Positions 1,829 through 50,443 of a stretch of DNA of 64,000 nt are shown here, one piece after another (position 1 is the stretch's first letter; every line of letters begins with the position of its first letter). Source of the DNA: Allomuricauda sp. (GTDB taxonomy: Bacteria; Bacteroidota; Bacteroidia; Flavobacteriales; Flavobacteriaceae); NCBI RefSeq assembly GCF_002699205.1, contig NZ_PABT01000049.1:183266-247265 (forward strand). The letters are read 5' to 3'. The translations under genes were made by a program, and so were the position numbers. The notes beneath the pieces were generated by a model. The model ran no database searches. It had not been told where the DNA came from and saw nothing but the letters and a program-made list of their open reading frames with translations.

Positions 1829-4201
1829 CTATTCACCCGAAGCTGAACGTACATCCACCAGTTGTTGAATCCGATTTCCAAAATTGTCCACAGCGGTAAG
1901 GATGTACTCCCCCGGTTCAATAGCTAGGATAAGCTCGTGGAAGTTTTCGGTCTTGCCCACAAAAGTTTCATCCAAATACCAATAAATAATGGCATTGGAT
2001 TGCTGATGGGCCAATTTTAGAACAATTTCAGAGGTTTTGTTGCCCAAATCCTTTGGTAGCAAAACTGCTTCGTTTTTTTTGGGGTAGATAAATTCCATTA
2101 AATTGTTTTCCAAAGCAGAGCAACCTTCCAAATAGGGGGGAAGGGGTTTGTAATTTGGATTGGAAGAAGTGTAATAGTATTCCAAAACAGGAGGAAGAAC
2201 CATCCAATTTTTGGTCACCATATCTTCCAAGGGATAACACTCCGAGTTGACCCTATATTGTTCCGATTTATCCAAAAATACCTGCTGATGATACGGACAG
2301 GGGGCACTTCGAGTACCGTGGGTGGGAACCAGGTCCTTTTTTGTGTCATCACAATATAAGGAAGCTCTATAACCGCTTTCTGAACAAACCTCTATTTCAA
2401 CTAAGTCATCAAATGGTTCCTGGAACCAACCACTATCGGGAAGTATATCCAAAACATCAAAAAGTAAAGGGGCCGCAGCGGTGATTCCTGTTAGTCCGGG
2501 CCTGCCCTCTCCATCGGCATTGCCCGCCCAAACGCCGATGGCATATTTGGGAGTTACACCAACTGCCCAAGCATCCTTAAAACCAAAACTGGTTCCTGTT
2601 TTCCAAGCAATGGGATGGGAGGAATCAAAAAACTGCCAGTTTTCATCACCTTCGGGCCGGTTTACCTCGTACATGGACCTGAAGGTACTATAGATTGCTC
2701 CTGCACCAAAAACTGTCGGGTCAAACTGTTGCTTACCAAAATCTTTGGATTCATTTTGTAAATAGGTAGCTTTTGTAAACTCAAGGTTTCTGTAAGTGCT
2801 GGAATGCGTTGTAAAATAATTCAAACTGGAGGCCATGGAAGCATAAGTCGAGGTCACTTCCCAAAGGGAACTTTCCGCACCTCCAAGAATCAAGGACAAT
2901 CCATAATAAGATGCCGGTCTGTCCAAAGATTCCATGTTCATCTTATGTAGTTTGTTATAGAATTTTTGAAGCCCGTATTCCCGTAGTAACCTAACTGCCG
3001 GCACATTCAGTGAACGGGAGAGTGCTTTGCTGGCAGGAACCGCCCCAACATGTTTCAAATCAAAATTCTGTGGATGGTATCCGTTGATCACTGTAGGTAC
3101 GTCCTCCACCAAACTATTTGGGAGTAGTTGGCCTTCATCCAATAAGGAAGCAAATAGAAAAGGTTTTAATGTGCTTCCGGTACTTCTTTTTTTGGTGATG
3201 ATGTCCACATAATTGGCATGTTTTTCCCCAGATGGTGAGTTTCCCACATACCCGAGTACTTTACGGGTCTCCACATCAAGGACCAAAATGGCCAGATTAT
3301 GGATCTCGTTGCTTTGCAATTGCCGATAATGTCTTTCGGCCAAAGTATTCAGCTGCTGCTGTAGCGACCTGTCCAAAGAAGTGGTGATGCGTTGGCCGGG
3401 ATGTTCATTTCGGATACGCTCGGTAAGATGAGGTGCTATATCCGGCAAAGGCATTGGTTTTTGTGGAAGTGGTTCAGAAATGGCCAGCTCGTAAGTGGTT
3501 TGGTCAATGATTTCTTTCTCCCATAGTTTTTTCAATAATCGATTTCGTTTGTCCAAAAAAGCCTGTTCGTTTCTTCCCGGGAAAATTAGGGCAGGTGCAT
3601 TTGGCAAAACGGCCAAGGCGGCAGATTGCCCCCAGCTCAATTCATGGGCAGGGATCCCAAAATAACGCCACGCTGCCGTTTCCAATCCCACTACATTGCC
3701 ACCATAGGGGGTGTGGGAGGCATAGAGTTTCAAAATTTCTTCCTTGGAGTACCGCAACTCCAACCGAGTGGCCATAAATACCTCGATGATTTTTTCCCAG
3801 TAGGTCCTGCTTCGATTTTTTCTGCTCAAACGGATGACTTGTTGGGTAATGGTACTGCCACCCCTACGGGTCTCTTTGGTGAGATTGTGTCCTATGGCCT
3901 TGATAATGGAAATGGGGTTAAACCCGGGATGCTTGTAAAAATACTCATCCTCAAAAAGTAAAATACTTTGCTTAAAGCGCTCTGGAACTGAGTCTATTTG
4001 TGGAAACCGCCATTGACCATCCTCCGCGATGCGTGCTCCGATAAGGAAACCATCGGAACTGTCCACAACGGTTGAGGTCGGGTCTTTGAAAAGGGCTTTG
4101 GGCAGACAAAACAACCATAAAACCAAAATGATGCCCAGAACACTGAGCTTGATTTTATGGTCGACTAGGATTCTTTTTACTGGCGCTAAAAATTCACTCA
4201 T
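1829..4201 (-). CDS. pbpC: Penicillin-binding protein 1C (transglycosylase/transpeptidase)
   Basis: Glycosyltransferase motifs (EDEYFYKHPGFNP, RRGGSTITQQVIR), transpeptidase STLKPF and KTGTS, C-terminal PBP1C-type domain. Confidence 0.93.
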   Translation of the reverse strand: MSEFLAPVKRILVDHKIKLSVLGIILVLWLFCLPKALFKDPTSTVVDSSDGFLIGARIAEDGQWRFPQIDSVPERFKQSILLFEDEYFYKHPGFNPISIIKAIGHNLTKETRRGGSTITQQVIRLSRKNRSRTYWEKIIEVFMATRLELRYSKEEILKLYASHTPYGGNVVGLETAAWRYFGIPAHELSWGQSAALAVLPNAPALIFPGRNEQAFLDKRNRLLKKLWEKEIIDQTTYELAISEPLPQKPMPLPDIAPHLTERIRNEHPGQRITTSLDRSLQQQLNTLAERHYRQLQSNEIHNLAILVLDVETRKVLGYVGNSPSGEKHANYVDIITKKRSTGSTLKPFLFASLLDEGQLLPNSLVEDVPTVINGYHPQNFDLKHVGAVPASKALSRSLNVPAVRLLREYGLQKFYNKLHKMNMESLDRPASYYGLSLILGGAESSLWEVTSTYASMASSLNYFTTHSSTYRNLEFTKATYLQNESKDFGKQQFDPTVFGAGAIYSTFRSMYEVNRPEGDENWQFFDSSHPIAWKTGTSFGFKDAWAVGVTPKYAIGVWAGNADGEGRPGLTGITAAAPLLFDVLDILPDSGWFQEPFDDLVEIEVCSESGYRASLYCDDTKKDLVPTHGTRSAPCPYHQQVFLDKSEQYRVNSECYPLEDMVTKNWMVLPPVLEYYYTSSNPNYKPLPPYLEGCSALENNLMEFIYPKKNEAVLLPKDLGNKTSEIVLKLAHQQSNAIIYWYLDETFVGKTENFHELILAIEPGEYILTAVDNFGNRIQQLVDVRSASGE

Positions 4202-4207
4202 GCAAGG

Positions 4208-7200
4208 TTACTGAACTATTTTTACCCATTTTCCTTTGTTTCGGGCTTGATAGTTGTTATCGTACATCGCTTCTGCTTGGGCACCTGGTAAATAATATTC
4301 ACCCAAGAAAGAGGCATTCAATTTGATGATAAAGGTTTTGGATTTTTTGGCATCCAAGTCAAAATATAAATTGGTTCTATCATCTCTGGTATCCACATAA
4401 TCCGCTGCGGAAGTGTTTGCATTGCCTCCCTCTGCAAATGAGGTATCCACAATCTCCCAACCACTGGGCACAATATGGGTGAGTGCAATGTTGTCGATAT
4501 AATCATCCGAACTGTTGAAAATACTGACCTGTGCTTGGAATTCGGTTCCTTGCCTAAGTTCATCCACGTTGATGGAATTACCAAGGGGATCAACATAGTT
4601 TACGGTTAACCTTAGGTTCTGTTGTTGCGCCAATTCTTCACCCACGGGCAATTTGCCCGATTGGGTCAGTGTGGCATAAATAGTATTTCCCTCATTGTTT
4701 TTTACCTCAATTTCTTCTTTAAAAGATGTAATGGCAAGTTCTCTTTGTGCAATGGCCCTATCTGTTTTCACAGTAACTTTTTTTCCGTTGTTGGTAAACG
4801 TGAGGTCGATGGATTTACCTCCATTTTTCAAAACCATTTTGGACATGGCCAAGAGGGCAAATGCCGTTTCTTGGGTACTGTACCATCGTTGGGACGATAA
4901 ATTTTTGGCCAAGGAAACGGCCAATTCCCTTTGTTGGGAATCACCTAAGATTACCATGGTCTCCAACGCCATTGCCCGGTTTCTGAATACGGAACCATAG
5001 GTTCTGTAATTATAATTGTTGGGGGTAAAGTTGATGTTCGCTTTTTGTGCAATGGCTTGTGCCACTTCTTTTTTGCCGACCAAGGCATAAGCGGCTGCCA
5101 ATCTCCATTTAGCCTCGTTGCTAAGATTTGCGGTTTCCCGTAAACGGTTCATGGCTGCCAGTTCGGGCTGTTGTGCCAAGGCCAAGGTGTACAGTCTGTA
5201 CGCTTGAGAAACATCATCGTTGTAATAGGTACTTTGGTTGCTCCATTGTCTTGCTGCATTTTTTTGGTATCTGAGCCAATTGCTCAAGAAGGTCAAGGGT
5301 AATTGGTATCCTTCTTGTTTTGCTTCCAACATAAAATGTCCGGCGTAAGAAGTGCCCCAATCATCGGCACTGCCATAACCGGGCCAGTAGCTTAACCCTC
5401 CATTGGAAAGTTGAAAATCACTAAGCCTATCAATAGCAGCTTTGATATTTTTCTCAATATCTTTCTTTTTGTCAAAAGTGATGTCCAACACATCGTCCAA
5501 GAACAATTGTGGGAATGCCGCCGAAGTTGTTTGCTCTATACATCCATGTGGGTACCGCAGCAAATAATCCATCCGTTTGGAGAAATCCATGGGAGGGAGC
5601 GTGGAGAATTCGATAAACGCTTCGTTGGTGCCCGATGTCCCAAAAGTCTCCATTGAAATGGTCTGTGTGCCATTGCCTTCCAAGGTATATAATTCACTTT
5701 TTGTGGTAACTGGGTTTGGGTTTTCCACATCAATTTCTGTTTCGTTACTGGCACTTTCCCCAGCTCCCGAAGCAGTTACTTTTATCGTCTGGAACGATGT
5801 TGCCGGGTTGACTTTAAAGTCAAAATTCACGATTTGCTCGCCAACGGTATTAAAGGTGATGTTTTTTGTTGTTCCGTTCAGAGGTTCCAATGCTTTGCCG
5901 GAATCAATGGATACCTTCACGTTTTTTACTTTGGGTTCCATGGCAAAAACTGTCACAGGGATGGTTACCTTTTCACCAGGTGATAATTTTCTTGGAATAG
6001 AGGTCAAAACCATCAATGGTTTGCGAACTGGAGTTGTTTTTTCTGCATTACCGTAGGCACTATTTTGGTTTCCTGCCACTACCATGGTTCGCACGGAGCC
6101 TACATAATTGGGCATATTGATAGTGTGGGAAGCCTTTTCTCCTGCCTTCAAGGTGAATGGTCCTAGATAGGTGACGACAGGTTTAAAACGTTGTGCTTTT
6201 CGGTTTTTTGCCCCTGAACCAATGCCACCACCACCAATGGCGTAGATATTATCCACACTTACAGAGTAAGCCCCCATCACATCATCAAAAATATCAAAGG
6301 TTTTTACCCCCAAGGCTTGCCTTGAATAGAATGAGCTATGGATATCTGGTGTTGTGAAGCGGGTAAGGTCCAACAGTCCTTCGTCCACCACGGCCAAGGA
6401 ATAGGTCATCGGTTTTTTACTGGCTTCGGAAACGGTAACCTTAAAGGCTTTTTCTGGCTCCAAAACATCCGGCATATTGATTACCGGTTCCAAGAATGTA
6501 GCGGGATTCTCCACTAAAAGGGGAACTACACCGTACAATCGTATGGGTAGGTCATTTTTAGCTTGACTATGGGGCTGTAATAATGAAATATTGACATAGG
6601 CGTTTGGTGCCATTTCAGCCGTAATCGGGATGGTTGCCTTGGTTTCCTTCGATGAGGTTTCAATCCATTGTTGGGATAATACTTCGGTACCATTTTCGAT
6701 GCTGACCAAGGCACGCCCACCTTTGTCCGAAGGGAAAGTAACGGTCGCTTTTTCTCCTAAAGTGTATTTTTCCTTATCGGTGGAGAAAATCAGGATTTTG
6801 GAACTTTCTGCGTCTGCGGAAGCAGGTCTTCTCCACCAATTTTGATAAAAATAAGCGGTACGGCCAGTCGCGTGCCCAGACACTTCATCAATAACGCGAA
6901 TCAGGTAACGGCCACCTTCCTCATCGGGAATATTGATGTTGAAATTGGCTTTTCCATTACTTTCCGTGGTGATGTTCATTTCCTTGAAAGGACGGTGAAC
7001 GGTTGCGTTTTCGTATCTAGATAGATTATCGTAACCGCGGTTCCACCACCAGCGCCATTCAATTTTGAATACGTGTACTTTTAACTTTCGGTTGCCCGAT
7101 GGGTTACCTTGGGCATCGACCGTGACCACATCAAATGTGTTGTTCTCGTCAGTTAAAAAAGAGCCATATTGCCTTGGTTTGGGAGAACGTAGTCCAACAA

Positions 7201-9769
7201 AATTTGAAAATGGCGCTAAATTTTTGGAAAACACATCAATGGAAAAATCACCCCCGCCTTCAAAAACTTTGGTGGTGAAAGTGGCTCTCAACATTCCAGG
7301 TGCATTGCCATTGATTTCTATTTTTTTATTGATGTCCAATTCACCGTTGGCATCCAATTGGGATGAGATCCATTGCAGTTCGGTCTCATTGAATGTTCGG
7401 GCAGGGTCTTGGAACACATAATCTTTGTATTTTGGAAATGCCACGGAGGACTGGCTCAATGTGGCATTGATATCGATTTTGAGGTTGCGGGCGGGAGCGC
7501 CGTGCAACCATTTTACCTCAGCTTTGCCTTTATTAAAAGAATTGGCTTCCAATACTTCATTTTCAAAAGCAAAATTCACTTTTAATCGATTTGGTTTCAC
7601 TGTGGCCACTTTTAAGCTTTTAGTGAACTGTGCGCCTCCAACAATCACTTTGGCCGACCAATTTCCTGTAGGGGCGGTTGCCTCTGTTGGGATGGGGAAA
7701 TAGTAGAAATTATTTTCCTTTTTGGCATAGTGACCATCGGAAATAGGAATACTCCCTTCTTTGAGTACATTACGCTGTACCAGTTTGCCGCGGGCGTCAT
7801 TCACCTCCAGAACAACAGGGTGCCCTTCGGGCAAAGGGTTGGCATTATCATCCAAAACAAAGGTCAAATGAATCACATCACCGGGTCGGTGAACCCCTCT
7901 TTCTGTATATAAATAGCCTTGCAAACCTTTCTGGAGCTGTTCCCCGGAAACATCAAACTTGCTAAGGGACAATGCGTTTCCATCTGAAAGTTTGGCGTAG
8001 GCAAAATTGTTGTTCTTTTCCGCCACGGCAAAAGCAATCCTTTTATCACTGTCAAAAATGGATAGTCCTGAGGCATCCGTAGTGGTTTCTCCGATAAGTT
8101 GTTGCTGGAAGTTGTAAAGCTTTATTTTGGCTCCGGCTTCGGGCTGGGTGGTGAGCAGATTGGTTACCGCAAAGTGGTACGAGCTGTTATTGCCTTTTTT
8201 TACGATAAGCCCTAAGTTGCTCCCCAGTAAGTTGGTGGCTGCGATCCTGTCATTATTATAGTAAGCGGAATGGCATGGATTGTCCCGTTCTTCCCAATTG
8301 TAGTCGTAGTTTCGATAATTGTATATTTCGTTATCCCAGTACAGTTCCTCTTTAGATGCTTCATCCGAAGTTTGTTCCAGTGCATACTCGGTAGTCGATT
8401 CCCCAGTTTCTGAACTTTCGCCACAATCATAAGTGGTGTGTTCTTTCTTAAAACTGAATTCCACTCGATATAATGAGCCTGGTTGAATTTGGATGAGTTT
8501 GGACAGATCCAGCCCGTGTGCTTGCCAATAACTTGTGTTTTCGTTGCCTTCATCCGTCAATGGGATTACTTTGTATGCCACCCTGCGTCCCACTGGTCTA
8601 AAATCTGGGTTGTAATTTTCCGTAAGATTATAGTTTTGCAGGTATTGTAGCATGTTGTTTTCATATACCTGTATTACCCTTACTTCAACGGCGGCAAGGT
8701 TGACCGTTTCAAAATAAATGGGCGTGGAGGTCGCATTGGGCAATATGGTTCCTTTGGAAATCAAGCGAACCGCTGGTTTTAACTGTTCAAAAGAGACCAA
8801 TTCGGAAAAGTTCTCCTTTAAGGTGAAGCCATATTCGCTTTTAATACCTTGAAATGCATTCACACGGACTTCTCCCAAAATTCGGTTGGACGGATAAACG
8901 CTCAAAACGTTTCCATTGATTTCATATCTAAGACTTTCCGCATTCTCGATGGTCACCAAACCGTTGAGGTTTTGGTCTTGCTTTAAGGGTTCCGAGAAAT
9001 TAAGGGTCAGTACGGCATTTGGTGAGGAAGTTGTCTTGGCATCAATTATCACGAATTTGTTTTTCCCGGGGATTGGATAGGTTTCCGAGCCTTCGTTGTC
9101 GATATCCAATGCCTTTCCGGTCCAATTGATGGTAAGCTCGCTATCTTCGGTCTTTCTGGGGATACTATCAATCTTAAAACTGAAGTACCGTGCATTATCA
9201 GTAGTATTGTCCCATTTTACGGGAATGTTTTTATCTCCTTGTTTTACCGAAAGTACCTTGTTTATTTTTGAGGCATCCAAAACGTCAGAAGCATCCAAAG
9301 TGCCCGTAACATATTGCCAATCTTTGCTGTACGATTGTAAATCACCGAGATTGATCCTGAAATTTGGTGCAATGGTCTTAAAACTGAAGGTATAGGTTTT
9401 AAACTCGTTATCAATATCTTGGAAGAGTTTATTGAGTTTCAGATTGATAGTGTATTCCGTGTTTGGCTTTAAATACTCTGAGGGTTGGAACAATAGCTCC
9501 CTACCATTTTCAATCATTAACTTTCCATCCACCTTTGGTGAAATCTCCAAGTACTCTTTGGGTAACTCTTGGGCCAATTCGTATTGCTCAAGCTGTTGGG
9601 CTAGGGCAATAGTGATGGGAGTGGAAATACTTTGTGTTCCGTTTGTATGATAACTGATATAGTCCTTGAACTTAAAAAGATTGTCGGTTTCTGAAGAACT
9701 GTCCTTTTTTTTGCAAGAAAATATAAGAATAAGAAAGGACAGAATAAGTGTTTTGTATGACCGGAACAT
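4208..9769 (-). CDS. Alpha-2-macroglobulin family lipoprotein (MG/bait region plus thioester domain)
   Basis: ~1850 aa, lipobox LIFSCKKK, thioester motif GCIEQ (YPHGCIEQTTSAAFPQ), adjacent to pbpC as in the known pbpC/yfhM pairing. Start placed at MFRSYKT rather than track start 9805. Confidence 0.93.
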   Translation of the reverse strand: MFRSYKTLILSFLILIFSCKKKDSSSETDNLFKFKDYISYHTNGTQSISTPITIALAQQLEQYELAQELPKEYLEISPKVDGKLMIENGRELLFQPSEYLKPNTEYTINLKLNKLFQDIDNEFKTYTFSFKTIAPNFRINLGDLQSYSKDWQYVTGTLDASDVLDASKINKVLSVKQGDKNIPVKWDNTTDNARYFSFKIDSIPRKTEDSELTINWTGKALDIDNEGSETYPIPGKNKFVIIDAKTTSSPNAVLTLNFSEPLKQDQNLNGLVTIENAESLRYEINGNVLSVYPSNRILGEVRVNAFQGIKSEYGFTLKENFSELVSFEQLKPAVRLISKGTILPNATSTPIYFETVNLAAVEVRVIQVYENNMLQYLQNYNLTENYNPDFRPVGRRVAYKVIPLTDEGNENTSYWQAHGLDLSKLIQIQPGSLYRVEFSFKKEHTTYDCGESSETGESTTEYALEQTSDEASKEELYWDNEIYNYRNYDYNWEERDNPCHSAYYNNDRIAATNLLGSNLGLIVKKGNNSSYHFAVTNLLTTQPEAGAKIKLYNFQQQLIGETTTDASGLSIFDSDKRIAFAVAEKNNNFAYAKLSDGNALSLSKFDVSGEQLQKGLQGYLYTERGVHRPGDVIHLTFVLDDNANPLPEGHPVVLEVNDARGKLVQRNVLKEGSIPISDGHYAKKENNFYYFPIPTEATAPTGNWSAKVIVGGAQFTKSLKVATVKPNRLKVNFAFENEVLEANSFNKGKAEVKWLHGAPARNLKIDINATLSQSSVAFPKYKDYVFQDPARTFNETELQWISSQLDANGELDINKKIEINGNAPGMLRATFTTKVFEGGGDFSIDVFSKNLAPFSNFVGLRSPKPRQYGSFLTDENNTFDVVTVDAQGNPSGNRKLKVHVFKIEWRWWWNRGYDNLSRYENATVHRPFKEMNITTESNGKANFNINIPDEEGGRYLIRVIDEVSGHATGRTAYFYQNWWRRPASADAESSKILIFSTDKEKYTLGEKATVTFPSDKGGRALVSIENGTEVLSQQWIETSSKETKATIPITAEMAPNAYVNISLLQPHSQAKNDLPIRLYGVVPLLVENPATFLEPVINMPDVLEPEKAFKVTVSEASKKPMTYSLAVVDEGLLDLTRFTTPDIHSSFYSRQALGVKTFDIFDDVMGAYSVSVDNIYAIGGGGIGSGAKNRKAQRFKPVVTYLGPFTLKAGEKASHTINMPNYVGSVRTMVVAGNQNSAYGNAEKTTPVRKPLMVLTSIPRKLSPGEKVTIPVTVFAMEPKVKNVKVSIDSGKALEPLNGTTKNITFNTVGEQIVNFDFKVNPATSFQTIKVTASGAGESASNETEIDVENPNPVTTKSELYTLEGNGTQTISMETFGTSGTNEAFIEFSTLPPMDFSKRMDYLLRYPHGCIEQTTSAAFPQLFLDDVLDITFDKKKDIEKNIKAAIDRLSDFQLSNGGLSYWPGYGSADDWGTSYAGHFMLEAKQEGYQLPLTFLSNWLRYQKNAARQWSNQSTYYNDDVSQAYRLYTLALAQQPELAAMNRLRETANLSNEAKWRLAAAYALVGKKEVAQAIAQKANINFTPNNYNYRTYGSVFRNRAMALETMVILGDSQQRELAVSLAKNLSSQRWYSTQETAFALLAMSKMVLKNGGKSIDLTFTNNGKKVTVKTDRAIAQRELAITSFKEEIEVKNNEGNTIYATLTQSGKLPVGEELAQQQNLRLTVNYVDPLGNSINVDELRQGTEFQAQVSIFNSSDDYIDNIALTHIVPSGWEIVDTSFAEGGNANTSAADYVDTRDDRTNLYFDLDAKKSKTFIIKLNASFLGEYYLPGAQAEAMYDNNYQARNKGKWVKIVQ

Positions 9770-45206: not shown

Positions 45207-45911
45207 ATGAACAAGAAAGTTGCCCTACAGGATTTAGGATTTAAGGATTACAAGGAGACCTGGGATTACCAAGAAGCTCTTTTTAAGGATATTGTGGACA
45301 CCAAAGTGCGCAACCGGCGGGAGGATGCCGGGCTTGAAACCCCAAACCATTTTTTGTTCGTGGAGCACCCGCATGTGTACACTTTGGGCAAGAGTGGGGA
45401 TATCAACAACTTGTTGGTGGACGAAAAAACCTTGGCAGAGAAAGGTGCTTCTTTTTACAAGATCAACCGTGGGGGGGATATTACCTACCATGGCCCTGGG
45501 CAAGTGGTGGGCTACCCTATTTTGGATTTGGACAATTTCTTCACGGACATTCACAAATACCTTCGTTTTTTGGAGGAGATGGTCATACTCACCTTGGCCG
45601 AATATGGCATAAAAGGGGAGCGCTCCAAAGGAGAAACAGGCGTTTGGTTGGATGTGGGCACTCCTTTTGCCCGTAAAATATGTGCCATGGGCGTACGCGC
45701 CAGTCGTTGGGTGACCATGCACGGTTTTGCCTTGAACGTAAACACGGATTTGGGCTATTTTGATATGATGATTCCCTGTGGTATCAAAGATAAGGCTGTG
45801 ACTTCCCTTAATGTGGAACTGGGCCAAAAAGAAGTGGATATGACAGCAGTGAAAGAAAAATTGCTGAAACATTTTACCGAACTTTTCGAGGCGGAGTTGA
45901 TTAGGGAATAG
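45207..45911 (+). CDS. lipB: Lipoyl(octanoyl) transferase
   Basis: FVEHPHVYTLGKSGD, NRGGDITYHGPGQVVGYPILDL, KICAMGVRASRWVTMHGFALNVN. Confidence 0.96.
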   Translation: MNKKVALQDLGFKDYKETWDYQEALFKDIVDTKVRNRREDAGLETPNHFLFVEHPHVYTLGKSGDINNLLVDEKTLAEKGASFYKINRGGDITYHGPGQVVGYPILDLDNFFTDIHKYLRFLEEMVILTLAEYGIKGERSKGETGVWLDVGTPFARKICAMGVRASRWVTMHGFALNVNTDLGYFDMMIPCGIKDKAVTSLNVELGQKEVDMTAVKEKLLKHFTELFEAELIRE

Positions 45912-46012
45912 GGAAGAGGCTGGGGTTTAGATTATCTTTTATCTGCCAACTCAATAGCCCATTCATCAATTGCCGGTGGAATTTTAACGAGAAAAATACT
46001 AACTTCACTTGC

Positions 46013-46040
46013 CTATGCTGAACTTGTTTCAGTATCGGTC
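46013..46040. repeat. Degenerate single REP-like hairpin
   Basis: ctatgctgaacttgtttcagtatcggtc, same hairpin class as the elements at 23.8-24.2 kb and 51.2 kb. Confidence 0.6.
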
Positions 46041-46217
46041 GATATCATTCATTTAAAAACGAATCATATCTTGTAACGTTGGCAACAAGCTGAAAACCTG
46101 CCGCACATTTTAGCACTTTCGGTTTTTGCCGAAACACAAATCCAACGCAAGAAAACCAAAAGAGCTAAAATTTTCCCAACACTAAGATTTGGATAGTTCA
46201 AATAAAAAATCTAATTT

Positions 46218-46235
46218 TGTTACTTATAGTCAACA
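46218..46235 (+). promoter_or_regulatory. Single C-box-like operator in front of the methylase gene
   Basis: TGTTACTTATAGTCAACA; shares the 14-mer TGTTACTTATAGTC with the operator upstream of the controller gene. Confidence 0.82.
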
Positions 46236-46245
46236 CCAGAGGAAT

Positions 46246-48123
46246 ATGAATAAAAGCACAATAAATGAACTAATTAACTCTCACGAGATAAACCTCATTG
46301 AGAAACATCTCATTTATTCATTTCTTCAAAACAACGATTTAGATTATTCAAAAAGTCCAATAATTTCAGAACTATTAACTGACTTTAAAGCAGAACCCGA
46401 AATCTATTTACTCGTTTCAACTCTGGACATTAAGGATTTAAAACTATTAGAGAATTATCTTGAACTTTTAATTCCCAAAAACGACAGGAAGGTAAATGGA
46501 GCATTCTTTACTCCTACTTACGTTGTAGATTTTATTATCAATGAAGTATCACCGAAAAACAATGACAAATGTTTAGACCCAAGTTGTGGTTGTGGAGCAT
46601 TTTTAATTGGCTTGGTTGAATATTTCCAAAAGACTTTTGATAAAAGTGTCAAAGCAACTATCAAAGAAAACATATATGGTTCTGATATATTGGGTTACAA
46701 TGTAAAACGCTCAAAAATAATCTTATCACTTTACGGACTTCTAAAAAATGAAATTATAGAAGAATCCGATTTTAATATTTACCATCAAGATAGTTTAAAA
46801 GCTGACTGGTCAACTAAATTTGAAATTATTGTTGGGAATCCACCATATGTTAAGTTTCAAGATTTAAGTGATGAAAACAGACATTATTTAATAAACAATT
46901 GGAAAAGTATTGAAAATGGAACTTTCAATTTATATTTTGCCTTTTTTGAATTGGGGCATAAACTTTTAACAAAAAATGGAAAGTTAGGTTACATAACACC
47001 AAACAATTATTTCACTTCGTTGGCAGGTTTGTCGCTTCGTCAATATTTTCTACAAAATAAATGTGTCACACGAATTGTAGATTTTAGGCATAAAAAGGTT
47101 TTTGATGCACAAACTTATACTGCTATAACTTTTCTTGACAACAAGAAAAATGAATCTATTTTATTCGACAAAATCAAAGATGAACAAACTTGTCCAAGTT
47201 TTTTAATATCTGCAAATGGTTCACCAAACTATATAGAAAACCTCAATGTAAATAAATGGCGTTTACTCAAAACGCAAGAACAGGAAAACATTAGAATTAT
47301 TGAAAACATTGGTACTCCGATAAAGCAATTATTTAATATCGCTGTTGGTATTGCGACATTAAAAGATGAAGTCTTTTTTATAGATTCTGTTGGCGAAAAA
47401 AATGGTTATTTAACCAAAACCACAGAAAACGGAACATTCTTAATTGAAAAAGAAATTACAAGACCAGTTTATAAAATATCTCAATTTAAAAGCCAAAAAG
47501 ACATTGAAAACAACACTTTAAGAATTATTACTCCTTATCACACGAATGCAAAAAATGCAGTTCCAATTTTAGAAGATGAATTCAAAATAAAATATCCAAA
47601 ATGCTACGAATACCTACTTTCTGAAAAGGAGAAATTAGAAGGAAGAGGAAAAGGAAAAAAAGTATTTACTCCGTTTTATATTTGGGGAAGAACACAAGGT
47701 ATTACAAGATTTGGTAAAAAAATATTGAATCCTACATTTAGTAAGCACCCAAGATTTTTATTTGTGCCAGAGGAGGATGCTTATTATACAAACGGTTACG
47801 GAATTTATTTTGACAGAGACCATTCAAATAAAGCAACATTATTTGAGGATTCAATTCATCCATTATCAAAAGAAGAAAATATTTTGGTTGTTCAAAAAAT
47901 CTTGAACTCTATTGTAATGGATTACTATGTAAGTAACACAAGTGTATCAATTCAAGGAGGTTTTCCTTGTTATCAAAAAAACTTTATTGAAAAATTTACT
48001 ATTCCTAAATTCTCAAAAGAAGAAGTTCAAATATTGAATAGTCTTGATGACAAAATGGAAATTGATGAGTTTTTAGTAGAAAAATATCAGCTAAATCTTC
48101 CTTTGCCAAATCTTGTTTCATAA
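46246..48123 (+). CDS. N6-adenine DNA methyltransferase, Eco57I/TaqI-like gamma class
   Basis: GAFFTPTYVVDFIINEV...CLDPSCGCGAFLIGLVEYF (motif I), IIVGNPPYVKF (motif IV), C-terminal TaqI-type specificity region. Track start 46189 replaced by ATG 46246, which lies just after the C-box. Confidence 0.92.
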   Translation: MNKSTINELINSHEINLIEKHLIYSFLQNNDLDYSKSPIISELLTDFKAEPEIYLLVSTLDIKDLKLLENYLELLIPKNDRKVNGAFFTPTYVVDFIINEVSPKNNDKCLDPSCGCGAFLIGLVEYFQKTFDKSVKATIKENIYGSDILGYNVKRSKIILSLYGLLKNEIIEESDFNIYHQDSLKADWSTKFEIIVGNPPYVKFQDLSDENRHYLINNWKSIENGTFNLYFAFFELGHKLLTKNGKLGYITPNNYFTSLAGLSLRQYFLQNKCVTRIVDFRHKKVFDAQTYTAITFLDNKKNESILFDKIKDEQTCPSFLISANGSPNYIENLNVNKWRLLKTQEQENIRIIENIGTPIKQLFNIAVGIATLKDEVFFIDSVGEKNGYLTKTTENGTFLIEKEITRPVYKISQFKSQKDIENNTLRIITPYHTNAKNAVPILEDEFKIKYPKCYEYLLSEKEKLEGRGKGKKVFTPFYIWGRTQGITRFGKKILNPTFSKHPRFLFVPEEDAYYTNGYGIYFDRDHSNKATLFEDSIHPLSKEENILVVQKILNSIVMDYYVSNTSVSIQGGFPCYQKNFIEKFTIPKFSKEEVQILNSLDDKMEIDEFLVEKYQLNLPLPNLVS

Positions 48124-48977
48124 GTCTTTAGTAAGTCTGTAAAAAAAGTATCGAAGGTTAAATTTTTTATTGTTGCGCTAGTCGTTTTTGGTAATAACCC
48201 ATCCTTTTTCAATTCGGCATCTGTATTATAAATCTTCAAAGTATTGAAATCTACTATTAATAAACATACTTTTTCATATTTGTATGCTTCATCCGTTTTA
48301 GAACTTCTTTGATTTATAGCATCAAAAGCGAGTAAATATTTTTCAATATGCGCATCAACATTATTATTCTTTGTAAAAGAAACTTTTTTCTTTTTTGCAT
48401 CAGTTTTATCGAATTCATTAACTGCTATCATATAAAACTCTCCTAAAACCATATTTGGACACCTTTTATGAAGATTTAACGCTTCTGCGAATGTTCTTTC
48501 ATATAAAGTGTCAAAATTGTTATTAAAGGAACTTAACTGACTTCTAACGTTTACAGTTAGAACTTTTTCTGTATAATTTTTACCATAATCATCATTTTTA
48601 CTTTTTAATATGCCGTCAGTTAACAAGATCTCTAATTTCATTTTCTCATTATTCGGTACTAATGAGACATCTTGGTCTTTTTTCTTTAAAATTCCAGCTA
48701 ATTTTAATTCTCCTTTTGATAAACCAAATCCTGGTTTAATGTGATTAGCATTTACACCTTTTCTTGCAAATTCGCTTTTCACAACTTCGTGCAGAAGATT
48801 TATTATTTTTTTAGTTTTTATTAAGTTGCCTTTACTTGTATTTCCTCCATAAATAATTGAATCTGAAATAGCTCTCTTTATAATCTTTAACGCTCTATCA
48901 ACTTTGATTCTCTTTGTTTTGCAAGATGATATTTCTTTTTCTAAATCATCTTTAATTTGAACATATGTTCTAGCCAT
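48087..48977 (-). CDS. Restriction endonuclease-like protein, paralog A
   Basis: Paralogous to the next gene (NVRSQLSSFNNNFDTLYERTFAEALNLHKRCPNMVLGEFYMI); R position in a C-M-R locus; overlaps methylase 3' end by 37 nt. Confidence 0.65.
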   Translation of the reverse strand: MARTYVQIKDDLEKEISSCKTKRIKVDRALKIIKRAISDSIIYGGNTSKGNLIKTKKIINLLHEVVKSEFARKGVNANHIKPGFGLSKGELKLAGILKKKDQDVSLVPNNEKMKLEILLTDGILKSKNDDYGKNYTEKVLTVNVRSQLSSFNNNFDTLYERTFAEALNLHKRCPNMVLGEFYMIAVNEFDKTDAKKKKVSFTKNNNVDAHIEKYLLAFDAINQRSSKTDEAYKYEKVCLLIVDFNTLKIYNTDAELKKDGLLPKTTSATIKNLTFDTFFTDLLKTYETRFGKGRFS

Positions 48978-48989
48978 TTTTTGGAAAAC

Positions 48990-49805
48990 TTAAAAGCGAT
49001 TATTATAACTTTCTAAAATATTATCGGTAAAAATTTCCCAAGACAATTCATCTATACTAGCGTCAGAATTTGCATCTAATAAACCGTCATTTATCAACTC
49101 TTGATTTGAACTATAAATTTTAGCAGGGGTTTGAGCAAAATCTACAAGCAATAAACATACTCTTTCATACTTATAATCCTCGCGAGTAAAATCTTGTCTA
49201 CCATTAATTGCTTGAAAAGATTTAATATACTTTTCAACCGCACCAACCTTATCAATAAACTGTACTATATTACTATCCATAACAGAAGCATCATACTCTT
49301 TAACCGGAATCATATAAACTTCTCCTAAAACCATTTTCTGACATCTAACGTGTAAATTTTGGGCTTCAGCAATAGTTCTTTCGTAAAGTGTGTCAAAATT
49401 TTTAGCAAGAGAACTCATTTGACTTCTAATATTTACAGAAATCGTACGCTCTGTATAATCTTTACCATAATAATCAGTTGCTTCTCTTAAAATTCCTTCA
49501 GTCATTGTTTCAGATTCTGGGACATATCCTTCAGGTGTAACGCAAACATCTTGATGTTTTTGTTTAATGAAACCAGCTAATTTAAGTTCAGGCTTTGATG
49601 CTCCAAGTGGCGGATGAATTCTATCAGGAGAAATTCCTTTTCTAATAAAATCAGCTTTGACAGCCTCGTGAATAAAGTTAATTGGTCGTGATGACCTAAT
49701 CATTGCTTCTTTTGCTTTAATTCCACCTTCAATAATTGATGTTTCTATAAGTTCTTTAAAACCATCAACTGCTTGTTGAATCGTTATCAAATTTGTCATT
49801 TCCAA
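48990..49805 (-). CDS. Restriction endonuclease-like protein, paralog B
   Basis: NIRSQMSSLAKNFDTLYERTIAEAQNLHVRCQKMVLGEVYMI; KPELKLAGFIKQKHQDV has a possible ExK motif; downstream of the controller gene. Confidence 0.65.
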   Translation of the reverse strand: MEMTNLITIQQAVDGFKELIETSIIEGGIKAKEAMIRSSRPINFIHEAVKADFIRKGISPDRIHPPLGASKPELKLAGFIKQKHQDVCVTPEGYVPESETMTEGILREATDYYGKDYTERTISVNIRSQMSSLAKNFDTLYERTIAEAQNLHVRCQKMVLGEVYMIPVKEYDASVMDSNIVQFIDKVGAVEKYIKSFQAINGRQDFTREDYKYERVCLLLVDFAQTPAKIYSSNQELINDGLLDANSDASIDELSWEIFTDNILESYNNRF

Positions 49806-50001
49806 AAAATTCTTTCAATGTAACTCCAAGTGCAACAGCAATTTTTTCAATATTGACAATTGATATGTTTCTTTGACCATTTTCAACACTTGCAATGTAA
49901 CTACGGTCTAAATCAGAAGCATAAGCTAAATCTTTTTGCGACATTTGCTTAACTTCCCTCAATTCTTTGATTCGAATTCCTATTTTAGACTTTATTTCCA
50001 C
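49765..50001 (-). CDS. XRE-family controller (C) protein of the restriction-modification locus
   Basis: IGIRIKELREVKQMSQKDLAYASDLDRSYIASVENGQRNISIVNIEKIAVALGVTLKEFF; GTG at 50001 proposed because the track start (TTG, 50037) falls inside the C-box. Confidence 0.85.
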   Translation of the reverse strand: MEIKSKIGIRIKELREVKQMSQKDLAYASDLDRSYIASVENGQRNISIVNIEKIAVALGVTLKEFFGNDKFDNDSTSS

Positions 50002-50020
50002 GGTTACAAAATTGAGGAAA

Positions 50021-50054
50021 TGTTGACTATAAATCAAAGACTATAAGTAACATA
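50021..50054 (-). promoter_or_regulatory. Tandem C-box operator of the controller/restriction operon
   Basis: Minus strand TATGTTACTTATAGTCTTTGATTTATAGTCAACA: two TTATAGTC-containing sites ~20 bp upstream of the controller start. Confidence 0.85.
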
Positions 50055-50443
50055 CAGAAATTAATCCAACACTTAAAGCCATACACATTTACAATTCGCT
50101 TCAACCAGCACACAAGCCAAAATTACAAAAGAGTATGCCTTTTCCAACGCTACAAACAGAACGAAAAAAAGCACAAAAACACAACAAATTATATAAAAAA
50201 TAGGCGATATAGCACTAAAATCAAAGCTTTCGCTCGTATCAAAGTTCGGGCTTAACCGAAAGGTTTATAAGTAAAATCCACTACTACTCATACACAAGAC
50301 CGATAAGTGCAACTCCAGCAAACCCTGTCCTAAAAATTCTTACCTTACTACTGTACTAAATAGGTTCTTGTGGCACAAATCAGTGGATGAATTCATATTC
50401 TGCTCGTTAGCTTCCCTATTTTCAATAACTAAATTACTATACC

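What the first reader, a model, noticed from the sequence alone, without database searches (positions are those of the whole stretch)
46013..50054. Controller-regulated restriction-modification locus with two paralogous endonuclease-like subunits
A gamma-class N6-adenine methylase (+) converges on two adjacent paralogs (-) preceded by an XRE controller gene. The paralogs align by eye across a long block (YGKNYTEKVLTVNVRSQLSSFNNNFDTLYERTFAEALNLHKRCPNMVLGEFYMI versus YGKDYTERTISVNIRSQMSSLAKNFDTLYERTIAEAQNLHVRCQKMVLGEVYMI). Tandem R-like genes suggest a heterodimeric endonuclease, yet only one methylase is present. An asymmetric target would normally need both strands protected, so either the site is palindromic or one paralog is accessory or inactive. 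I do not recognise the endonuclease family; a possible ExK lies in KPELKLAGFIKQKHQDV.
Basis: partly seen in the sequence, partly recalled or inferred. Interest (0 to 1): 0.78.

Follow-up and report, generated by a model that had tools for sequence, protein, structure and literature searches.

The report
Restriction system with second nuclease gene
This is an ordinary-looking bacterial DNA-cutting defence system that carries two different versions of its cutting enzyme but only one protective enzyme; the extra cutter seems to have arrived by gene exchange with a related system, which may show how two-part cutting enzymes begin to evolve.

Summary
The locus is a controller-regulated Type II restriction-modification system in a Bacteroidota genome: one gamma-class N6-adenine methylase (M, +) converging on C, RA and RB (-). 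RA and RB are 47% identical, and both match PADLOC endonuclease model PDLC03558 (4e-85, 8.6e-67). C-box-like operators sit before C and at the start of M, as in Esp1396I.

The tandem is the unusual part. None of about 36 related loci has two R genes side by side; the Bacteroidota relatives are C-R converging on M. Against the closest relative (Lutibacter L003), identity is 96-98% outside, but about 78-81% inside, a 1.34-kb block (47943-49281) holding the 3' end of RA, all of RB and the 3' end of M. A block already containing RA'-RB-M' was apparently exchanged by homologous recombination.

One methylase is no paradox, because single-R relatives also have one. Both R proteins are predicted confidently (pLDDT 91-92) with a PD-(D/E)XK-like core, nearest PspGI, then BbvCI. 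RB looks intact, so a working second subunit or redundant nuclease is likelier than decay, but activity is untested. New variant of a known kind.

The parts
46246..48123 (+). M: gamma-class N6-adenine DNA methylase, 625 aa (open frame from 46189)
   Evidence: Pfam Eco57I 3.7e-29, N6_Mtase 2e-24; PADLOC MTase_II 5.6e-132; CamA and BseCI methylases in the PDB at 2.8e-20 and 4.4e-17
46218..46235 (+). OM-like C-box TGTTACTTATAGTCAACA, just upstream of the M start codon
   Evidence: exact ACTTATAGTC; kept upstream of M in L003, L004, L005, L008, L013, L010, L045
48087..48977 (-). RB: second R paralog, 296 aa, starts 12 nt after the RA stop; its 3' end overlaps the 3' end of M by 37 nt
   Evidence: PADLOC REase_II PDLC03558 8.6e-67; 47% identical to RA; AlphaFold2 pLDDT 92.2, pTM 0.91
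48990..49799 (-). RA: main R gene, 269 aa from ATG (TTG start possible at 49805)
   Evidence: PADLOC REase_II PDLC03558 4e-85; 95-96% identical to the R of Lutibacter L003; pLDDT 91.0, pTM 0.90
49765..50001 (-). C: controller protein (XRE/HTH_3), likely GTG start at 50001 (open frame to 50037); overlaps the RA start
   Evidence: PADLOC Control_protein 7.3e-24, Pfam HTH_3 1.3e-13
50025..50048 (-). OL/OR-like tandem C-boxes ACTTATAGTC...ATTTATAGTC upstream of C
   Evidence: the same pair upstream of C in L003, L004, L005, L008, L012, L024, L034, L035, L045, L067, L068
47943..49281 (.). recombination block: 3' end of RA + all of RB + 3' end of M, from a diverged donor lineage
   Evidence: change-points versus L003: M 96.4% to 77.9% at 47943 (LLR 35.1, largest shuffle 7.8); C-RA 98.0% to 81.2% at 49281 (LLR 41.2, largest shuffle 11.7)
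45929..50336 (.). whole insertion between lipB and a lipoprotein gene
   Evidence: empty site in congener L048: 45928 and 50337 are 32 bp apart there

Best explanation
A C-protein-controlled Type II restriction-modification system, organised like Esp1396I, of an R family that normally acts with one R and one M. In this genome the C-R operon has gained a second, diverged R gene (RB) through homologous exchange of a 1.34-kb block with a related locus that already carried RA'-RB-M'. RA and RB are translated from one operon and both keep the family's invariant residues, so both probably make nuclease subunits that act at the site methylated by the single M, as mixed RA/RB assemblies and/or parallel homodimers. 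C delays the R genes and represses M through C-boxes. Shown by sequence: gene order, homology, operators by consensus, recombination block. Inferred: symmetric target, shared specificity, activity of RB, co-assembly.
For: Family assignment of all four genes. Single-R, single-M relatives. Change-points on both sides of RB. RA part inside the block: dS about 2.5 (saturated) with dN 0.05, so RA stayed under purifying selection in the donor lineage; the RA part outside has dS 0.10. RB has an intact 296-aa frame, keeps 49 of the 54 columns invariant in the other 25 members and its five changes are mostly conservative. Confident similar folds for RA and RB, both closest to PspGI (E 1.8e-3 and 3.0e-3) and then BbvCI. 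The methylase recognition region is as conserved across the Bacteroidota clade (59-64%) as the rest of M, which suggests one shared target.
Against: No assay. RB is on a long branch (1.45) and has no close relative (best 52%), and loses invariant E20 (to S), R36 (to K) and S37 (to T), so it may have relaxed constraint or an altered function. The D/ExK position N-x-R is not a standard catalytic motif.
Confidence: 0.5

Rival explanations
1. RB is an independent, redundant isoschizomer: RB homodimers cut the same M-protected site and RA and RB do not mix.
For: RB-like proteins stand alone as the only R in L012, L013 and L034, its nearest relatives, so an RB-type protein can be a complete enzyme.
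Against: RB has diverged far from those relatives (long branch, 49-52% identity); an exact duplicate function gives no obvious reason for retention.
Confidence: 0.25
2. RB is an inactive or decaying passenger brought in with the recombination block, or a dominant-negative subunit that dampens RA.
For: RB shows accelerated divergence and the second-highest loss of invariant columns in the family (5 of 54; only L028 loses more, 6 of 55); only one side of the recombination needs to have been selected.
Against: Intact frame, all core motif columns kept (QD, N-x-RSQ, N-x-DTL-x-ERT), coding-type codon-position composition, confident fold. Close orthologues are missing, so dN/dS of RB cannot be computed.
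Confidence: 0.2
3. RA:RB is already an obligate heterodimer with an asymmetric or altered target, an incipient Type IIT enzyme.
For: Two adjacent paralogous R genes, as in BbvCI (PMC6326814), and BbvCI among the top fold matches.
Against: Type IIT systems generally have two methylases or a fused pair (PMC4081073); here there is one, and no other close methylase in the genome (best 27-29% identity).
Confidence: 0.05

Closest known systems
Esp1396I RM system (C/R operon convergent with M, operators OL, OR and OM; PMC4041747)
   Same: gene order C-R converging on M, XRE controller, two tandem C-boxes before C and one at the start of M
   Different: second R gene in the operon; relation of the R protein to R.Esp1396I could not be tested (its sequence was not held)
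BbvCI / Bpu10I, heterodimeric Type IIT endonucleases (PMC6326814, PMC4081073)
   Same: two adjacent paralogous R subunits of about 270-300 aa; BbvCI is among the best fold matches of RA and RB
   Different: no sequence family match; one N6-adenine methylase here instead of the two methylases usual for Type IIT; N-x-R instead of E-x-K; asymmetric target not shown
PADLOC REase_II model PDLC03558 with MTase_II model PDLC03335
   Same: RA, RB and M match these models over nearly full length
   Different: the usual locus has one R gene
PspGI (PDB 3bm3)
   Same: best fold match of both models, probability 0.98-0.99
   Different: TM-score only 0.36-0.39, 9-13% identity, no sequence match

Membership tests
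C-controlled Type II RM system (Esp1396I-like organisation) | XRE controller gene in an operon with R, M convergent | tested here: met
C-controlled Type II RM system (Esp1396I-like organisation) | tandem C-boxes upstream of C and one C-box at M | tested here: met
   by consensus and conservation across loci; binding itself not tested
PADLOC REase_II PDLC03558 | full-length profile match | tested here: met
   4e-85 (RA) and 8.6e-67 (RB)
PD-(D/E)XK nuclease superfamily | alpha-beta-beta-beta-alpha-beta core | tested here: met
   predicted only: strand and helix order; top PDB matches PspGI and BbvCI, E 1.8e-3 to 1e-2, so remote
PD-(D/E)XK nuclease superfamily | canonical D/E-x-K on the third strand | tested here: not met
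   N124-x-R126 in RA, same in RB and most of the family; N is G in L028 and L069, R is invariant. The 2014 review notes that residues of this motif can be recruited from elsewhere (PMC4081073)
Type IIT heterodimeric endonuclease | two different R subunits | tested here: inconclusive
   two R genes present; assembly not testable here
Type IIT heterodimeric endonuclease | usually two methylases, one per strand of an asymmetric site | tested here: not met
   one M at the locus; other genomic matches only 26-29% identical
Type IIT heterodimeric endonuclease | asymmetric recognition site | not testable with these tools
   needs methylome or cleavage data
XhoI family (PF04555) | sequence or profile relationship | tested here: not met
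   no Pfam match; profile-profile probability 2.2%, E 0.022, although D and K/R-S-Q columns line up

The most novel reading that the evidence does not exclude
RA and RB form a mixed nuclease under a single methylase: a natural intermediate on the path from a homodimeric, palindromic enzyme to a heterodimeric Type IIT enzyme, spreading by exchange of a small R-containing block; and its active site uses arginine where lysine is standard.
Probability: 0.25. Interest if true: 0.65.

Novelty: new variant of a known kind. Interest (0 to 1): 0.42.

Why it matters
Heterodimeric restriction enzymes are thought to have diverged from homodimeric relatives (Bsu36I, Bpu10I and BbvCI are cited as divergent kin in PMC4081073), but intermediates with two R genes and one methylase are not described in what I could read. 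Here the single-R relatives, the recombination borders and the intact second gene are all available, so the first step of subunit specialisation could be tested directly. The family also lacks a Pfam model and a solved structure, and its N-x-R motif makes the catalytic residues worth testing.

Tried and rejected
Pfam and NCBIfam for RA and RB: nothing above chance. PDB sequence search with RB (phmmer) and with the family profile: nothing significant. Phage records and viral contigs: no relative. XhoI family as a parent: rejected at profile level. Tandem duplication of RA as the source of RB: rejected, since RA is 96% identical to L003 R while RB is 47% identical to RA and groups with L012/L013/L034. 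Overlap of reading frames as the cause of the M tail divergence: rejected, since the change-point lies about 144 nt before the 37-nt overlap. Apparent second R fragments in L024, L030 and L036/L046: split single genes, because the pieces cover successive parts of the profile. G774 weak match (L041): chance-level with the family profile. An integron integrase in the window's genome: only generic tyrosine recombinases below the family cut-off. Rfam: nothing real.

Full report
What is there. Between lipB (45207-45911, +) and a lipoprotein gene (50444, +) lies a convergent pair of units: M (46246-48123, +) and C-RA-RB (50001-48087, -). M matches Pfam Eco57I and N6_Mtase and PADLOC MTase_II; its motif order is gamma. 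C matches PADLOC Control_protein. RA and RB have no Pfam or NCBIfam match but both match PADLOC REase_II PDLC03558 at 4e-85 and 8.6e-67. They are 47% identical to each other over 272 columns. The genome holds no further R of this family and no close second M.

Regulation. ACTTATAGTC occurs exactly twice in the 64-kb window (46222 and, on the minus strand, 50048), at the start of M and upstream of C; a second half-matching box follows the latter (50034, minus strand). The pair upstream of C is kept in eleven of the other loci checked, and the M box in at least seven, sometimes with one change. This is the layout of Esp1396I, in which C first activates and then represses its own operon and represses M (PMC4041747). 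Binding was not tested.

Family and usual architecture. A scan of genome contigs gave 30 relatives, and samples of the phylum, family and class gave seven more, one of them chance-level (L041); about 1% of the genomes sampled carry the family. Three plasmid records add more. In the Bacteroidota and Acidobacteria loci the order is C-R converging on M with a single R; Bacillota and others have single R with M in varied orientation. No other locus has two R genes side by side; split copies in L024, L030 and L036/L046 are single broken genes. The one-methylase state is therefore ancestral and needs no special explanation: the simplest inference is a symmetric site.

Origin of the second gene. RA groups with L003 (Lutibacter, 96%) and L004 (Phaeodactylibacter, 92%); RB groups with L012, L013 and L034 (support 95/85) on a long branch. 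Against L003, M is 96.4% identical in DNA up to 47943 and 77.9% after it (LLR 35.1; largest of 300 shuffles 7.8), and C-RA is 98.0% identical up to 49281 and 81.2% after it (LLR 41.2; largest of 200 shuffles 11.7). RB lies between these borders. L003 against L004 shows no comparable step, and the window's M tail is the odd one out, so the window is more likely the recipient, although loss of RB in the L003 lineage by the reverse exchange is not excluded. In either case the block contains the 3' part of an RA-type gene, RB and the 3' part of an M gene in contiguous order, so the tandem existed in a donor lineage that had already diverged from L003 (dS in the RA part about 2.5, saturated, against 0.10 outside). 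RA remained constrained there (dN 0.05).

Is RB functional? It is an intact frame 12 nt downstream of RA, with coding-type codon-position composition. It keeps 49 of 54 columns that are invariant in the other 25 members; the five changes are E to S, R to K, S to T, Y to F and I to L, three of them (E20, R36, S37 in RA numbering) in the N-terminal helices. That is compatible with an active protein with an altered interface, and also with relaxed constraint. No orthologue close enough for dN/dS was found.

Fold and active site. AlphaFold2 models from family alignments have pLDDT 91.0 (RA) and 92.2 (RB). Order of elements: N-terminal helices, a short kinked hairpin (RA 74-83 and 86-88), strand 121-127, helix 136-153, strand 159-166. 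The best PDB matches of both are PspGI (E 1.8e-3 for RA, 3.0e-3 for RB, probability 0.98-0.99) and BbvCI R2, with low TM-scores (0.26-0.39), so this is a remote resemblance, not membership. Q-D85 opens the second strand and N124-x-R126-S-Q ends the third, where PD and D/E-x-K normally sit. R126, S127, Q128, N135, E141 and E146 are invariant in the 26-member alignment. XhoI-family proteins align with WD to QD and ELKSQ to NIRSQ, but the profile score is not significant. Which residues are catalytic is therefore inference: D85 and R126, with E141 or another glutamate recruited from elsewhere, as known for some enzymes of this superfamily (PMC4081073, PMC6326814). Residue numbers are those of the 270-residue translation of 48990-49802.

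Mechanism and verdict. The committed reading is that C, RA and RB are made from one late-activated operon, M early; RA and RB both contribute nuclease subunits acting on the site that M protects. Whether they mix is open (mixed and/or parallel 0.5, strictly redundant homodimers 0.25, passive or dampening 0.2, obligate asymmetric heterodimer 0.05). It works somewhat like Type IIT pairs in having two subunits, but is not filed there, because the two-methylase feature was tested and not met and the asymmetric site could not be tested. A limit: the window comes from a draft assembly (53 contigs), and reads were not available to check the block, although its borders fall inside intact reading frames.

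Mobility. Congeners show an empty site (L048) or other genes (L051, L052) between the same borders, and in L003 and L004 the system is flanked by long hairpins resembling integron attC sites (three of three in L003 fold better than nearly all shuffles; z -4.1, -2.4, -3.5), with a XerA/integron-type tyrosine recombinase next to M in L004. The system therefore probably travels as a cassette; the window's own left border hairpin is not significant (z -0.29).

Noticed in passing
window 45929-50336; L048, L051, L052: The lipB/lipoprotein gap is an insertion hotspot in the genus: empty in L048, an HNH-like gene in L051, an HTH gene and further genes in L052, with L051 and L052 sharing the left border up to 46081 and L051 the right border from 50281.
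   Followed up: partly
L003:118-250, 722-866, 4070-4200; L004:2715-2860 and 6081-7841: attC-like long hairpins flank the RM system in Lutibacter and Phaeodactylibacter, and a XerA/integron-type tyrosine recombinase with a roughly 290-aa N-terminal extension lies next to M in L004: the RM system looks like a cassette.
   Followed up: partly
L006 and L009 (CP058707.1, about 14 kb apart): Two copies of the RM system in one chromosome with near-identical R genes; M is intact in one copy and broken into four pieces in the other. The record has ambiguous bases, so errors are possible.
   Followed up: partly
L069:1489-2178 (-): A short distant homologue (229 aa) of the R family that keeps D, RSQ and KN motifs but not the N of N-x-R; neighbourhood not examined.
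   Followed up: partly
L082 and L083 (plasmids of Pontibacillus and Limosilactobacillus oris): R-family genes annotated as hypothetical proteins with no annotated methylase among the neighbouring genes shown (the plasmid gene table is incomplete).
   Followed up: no
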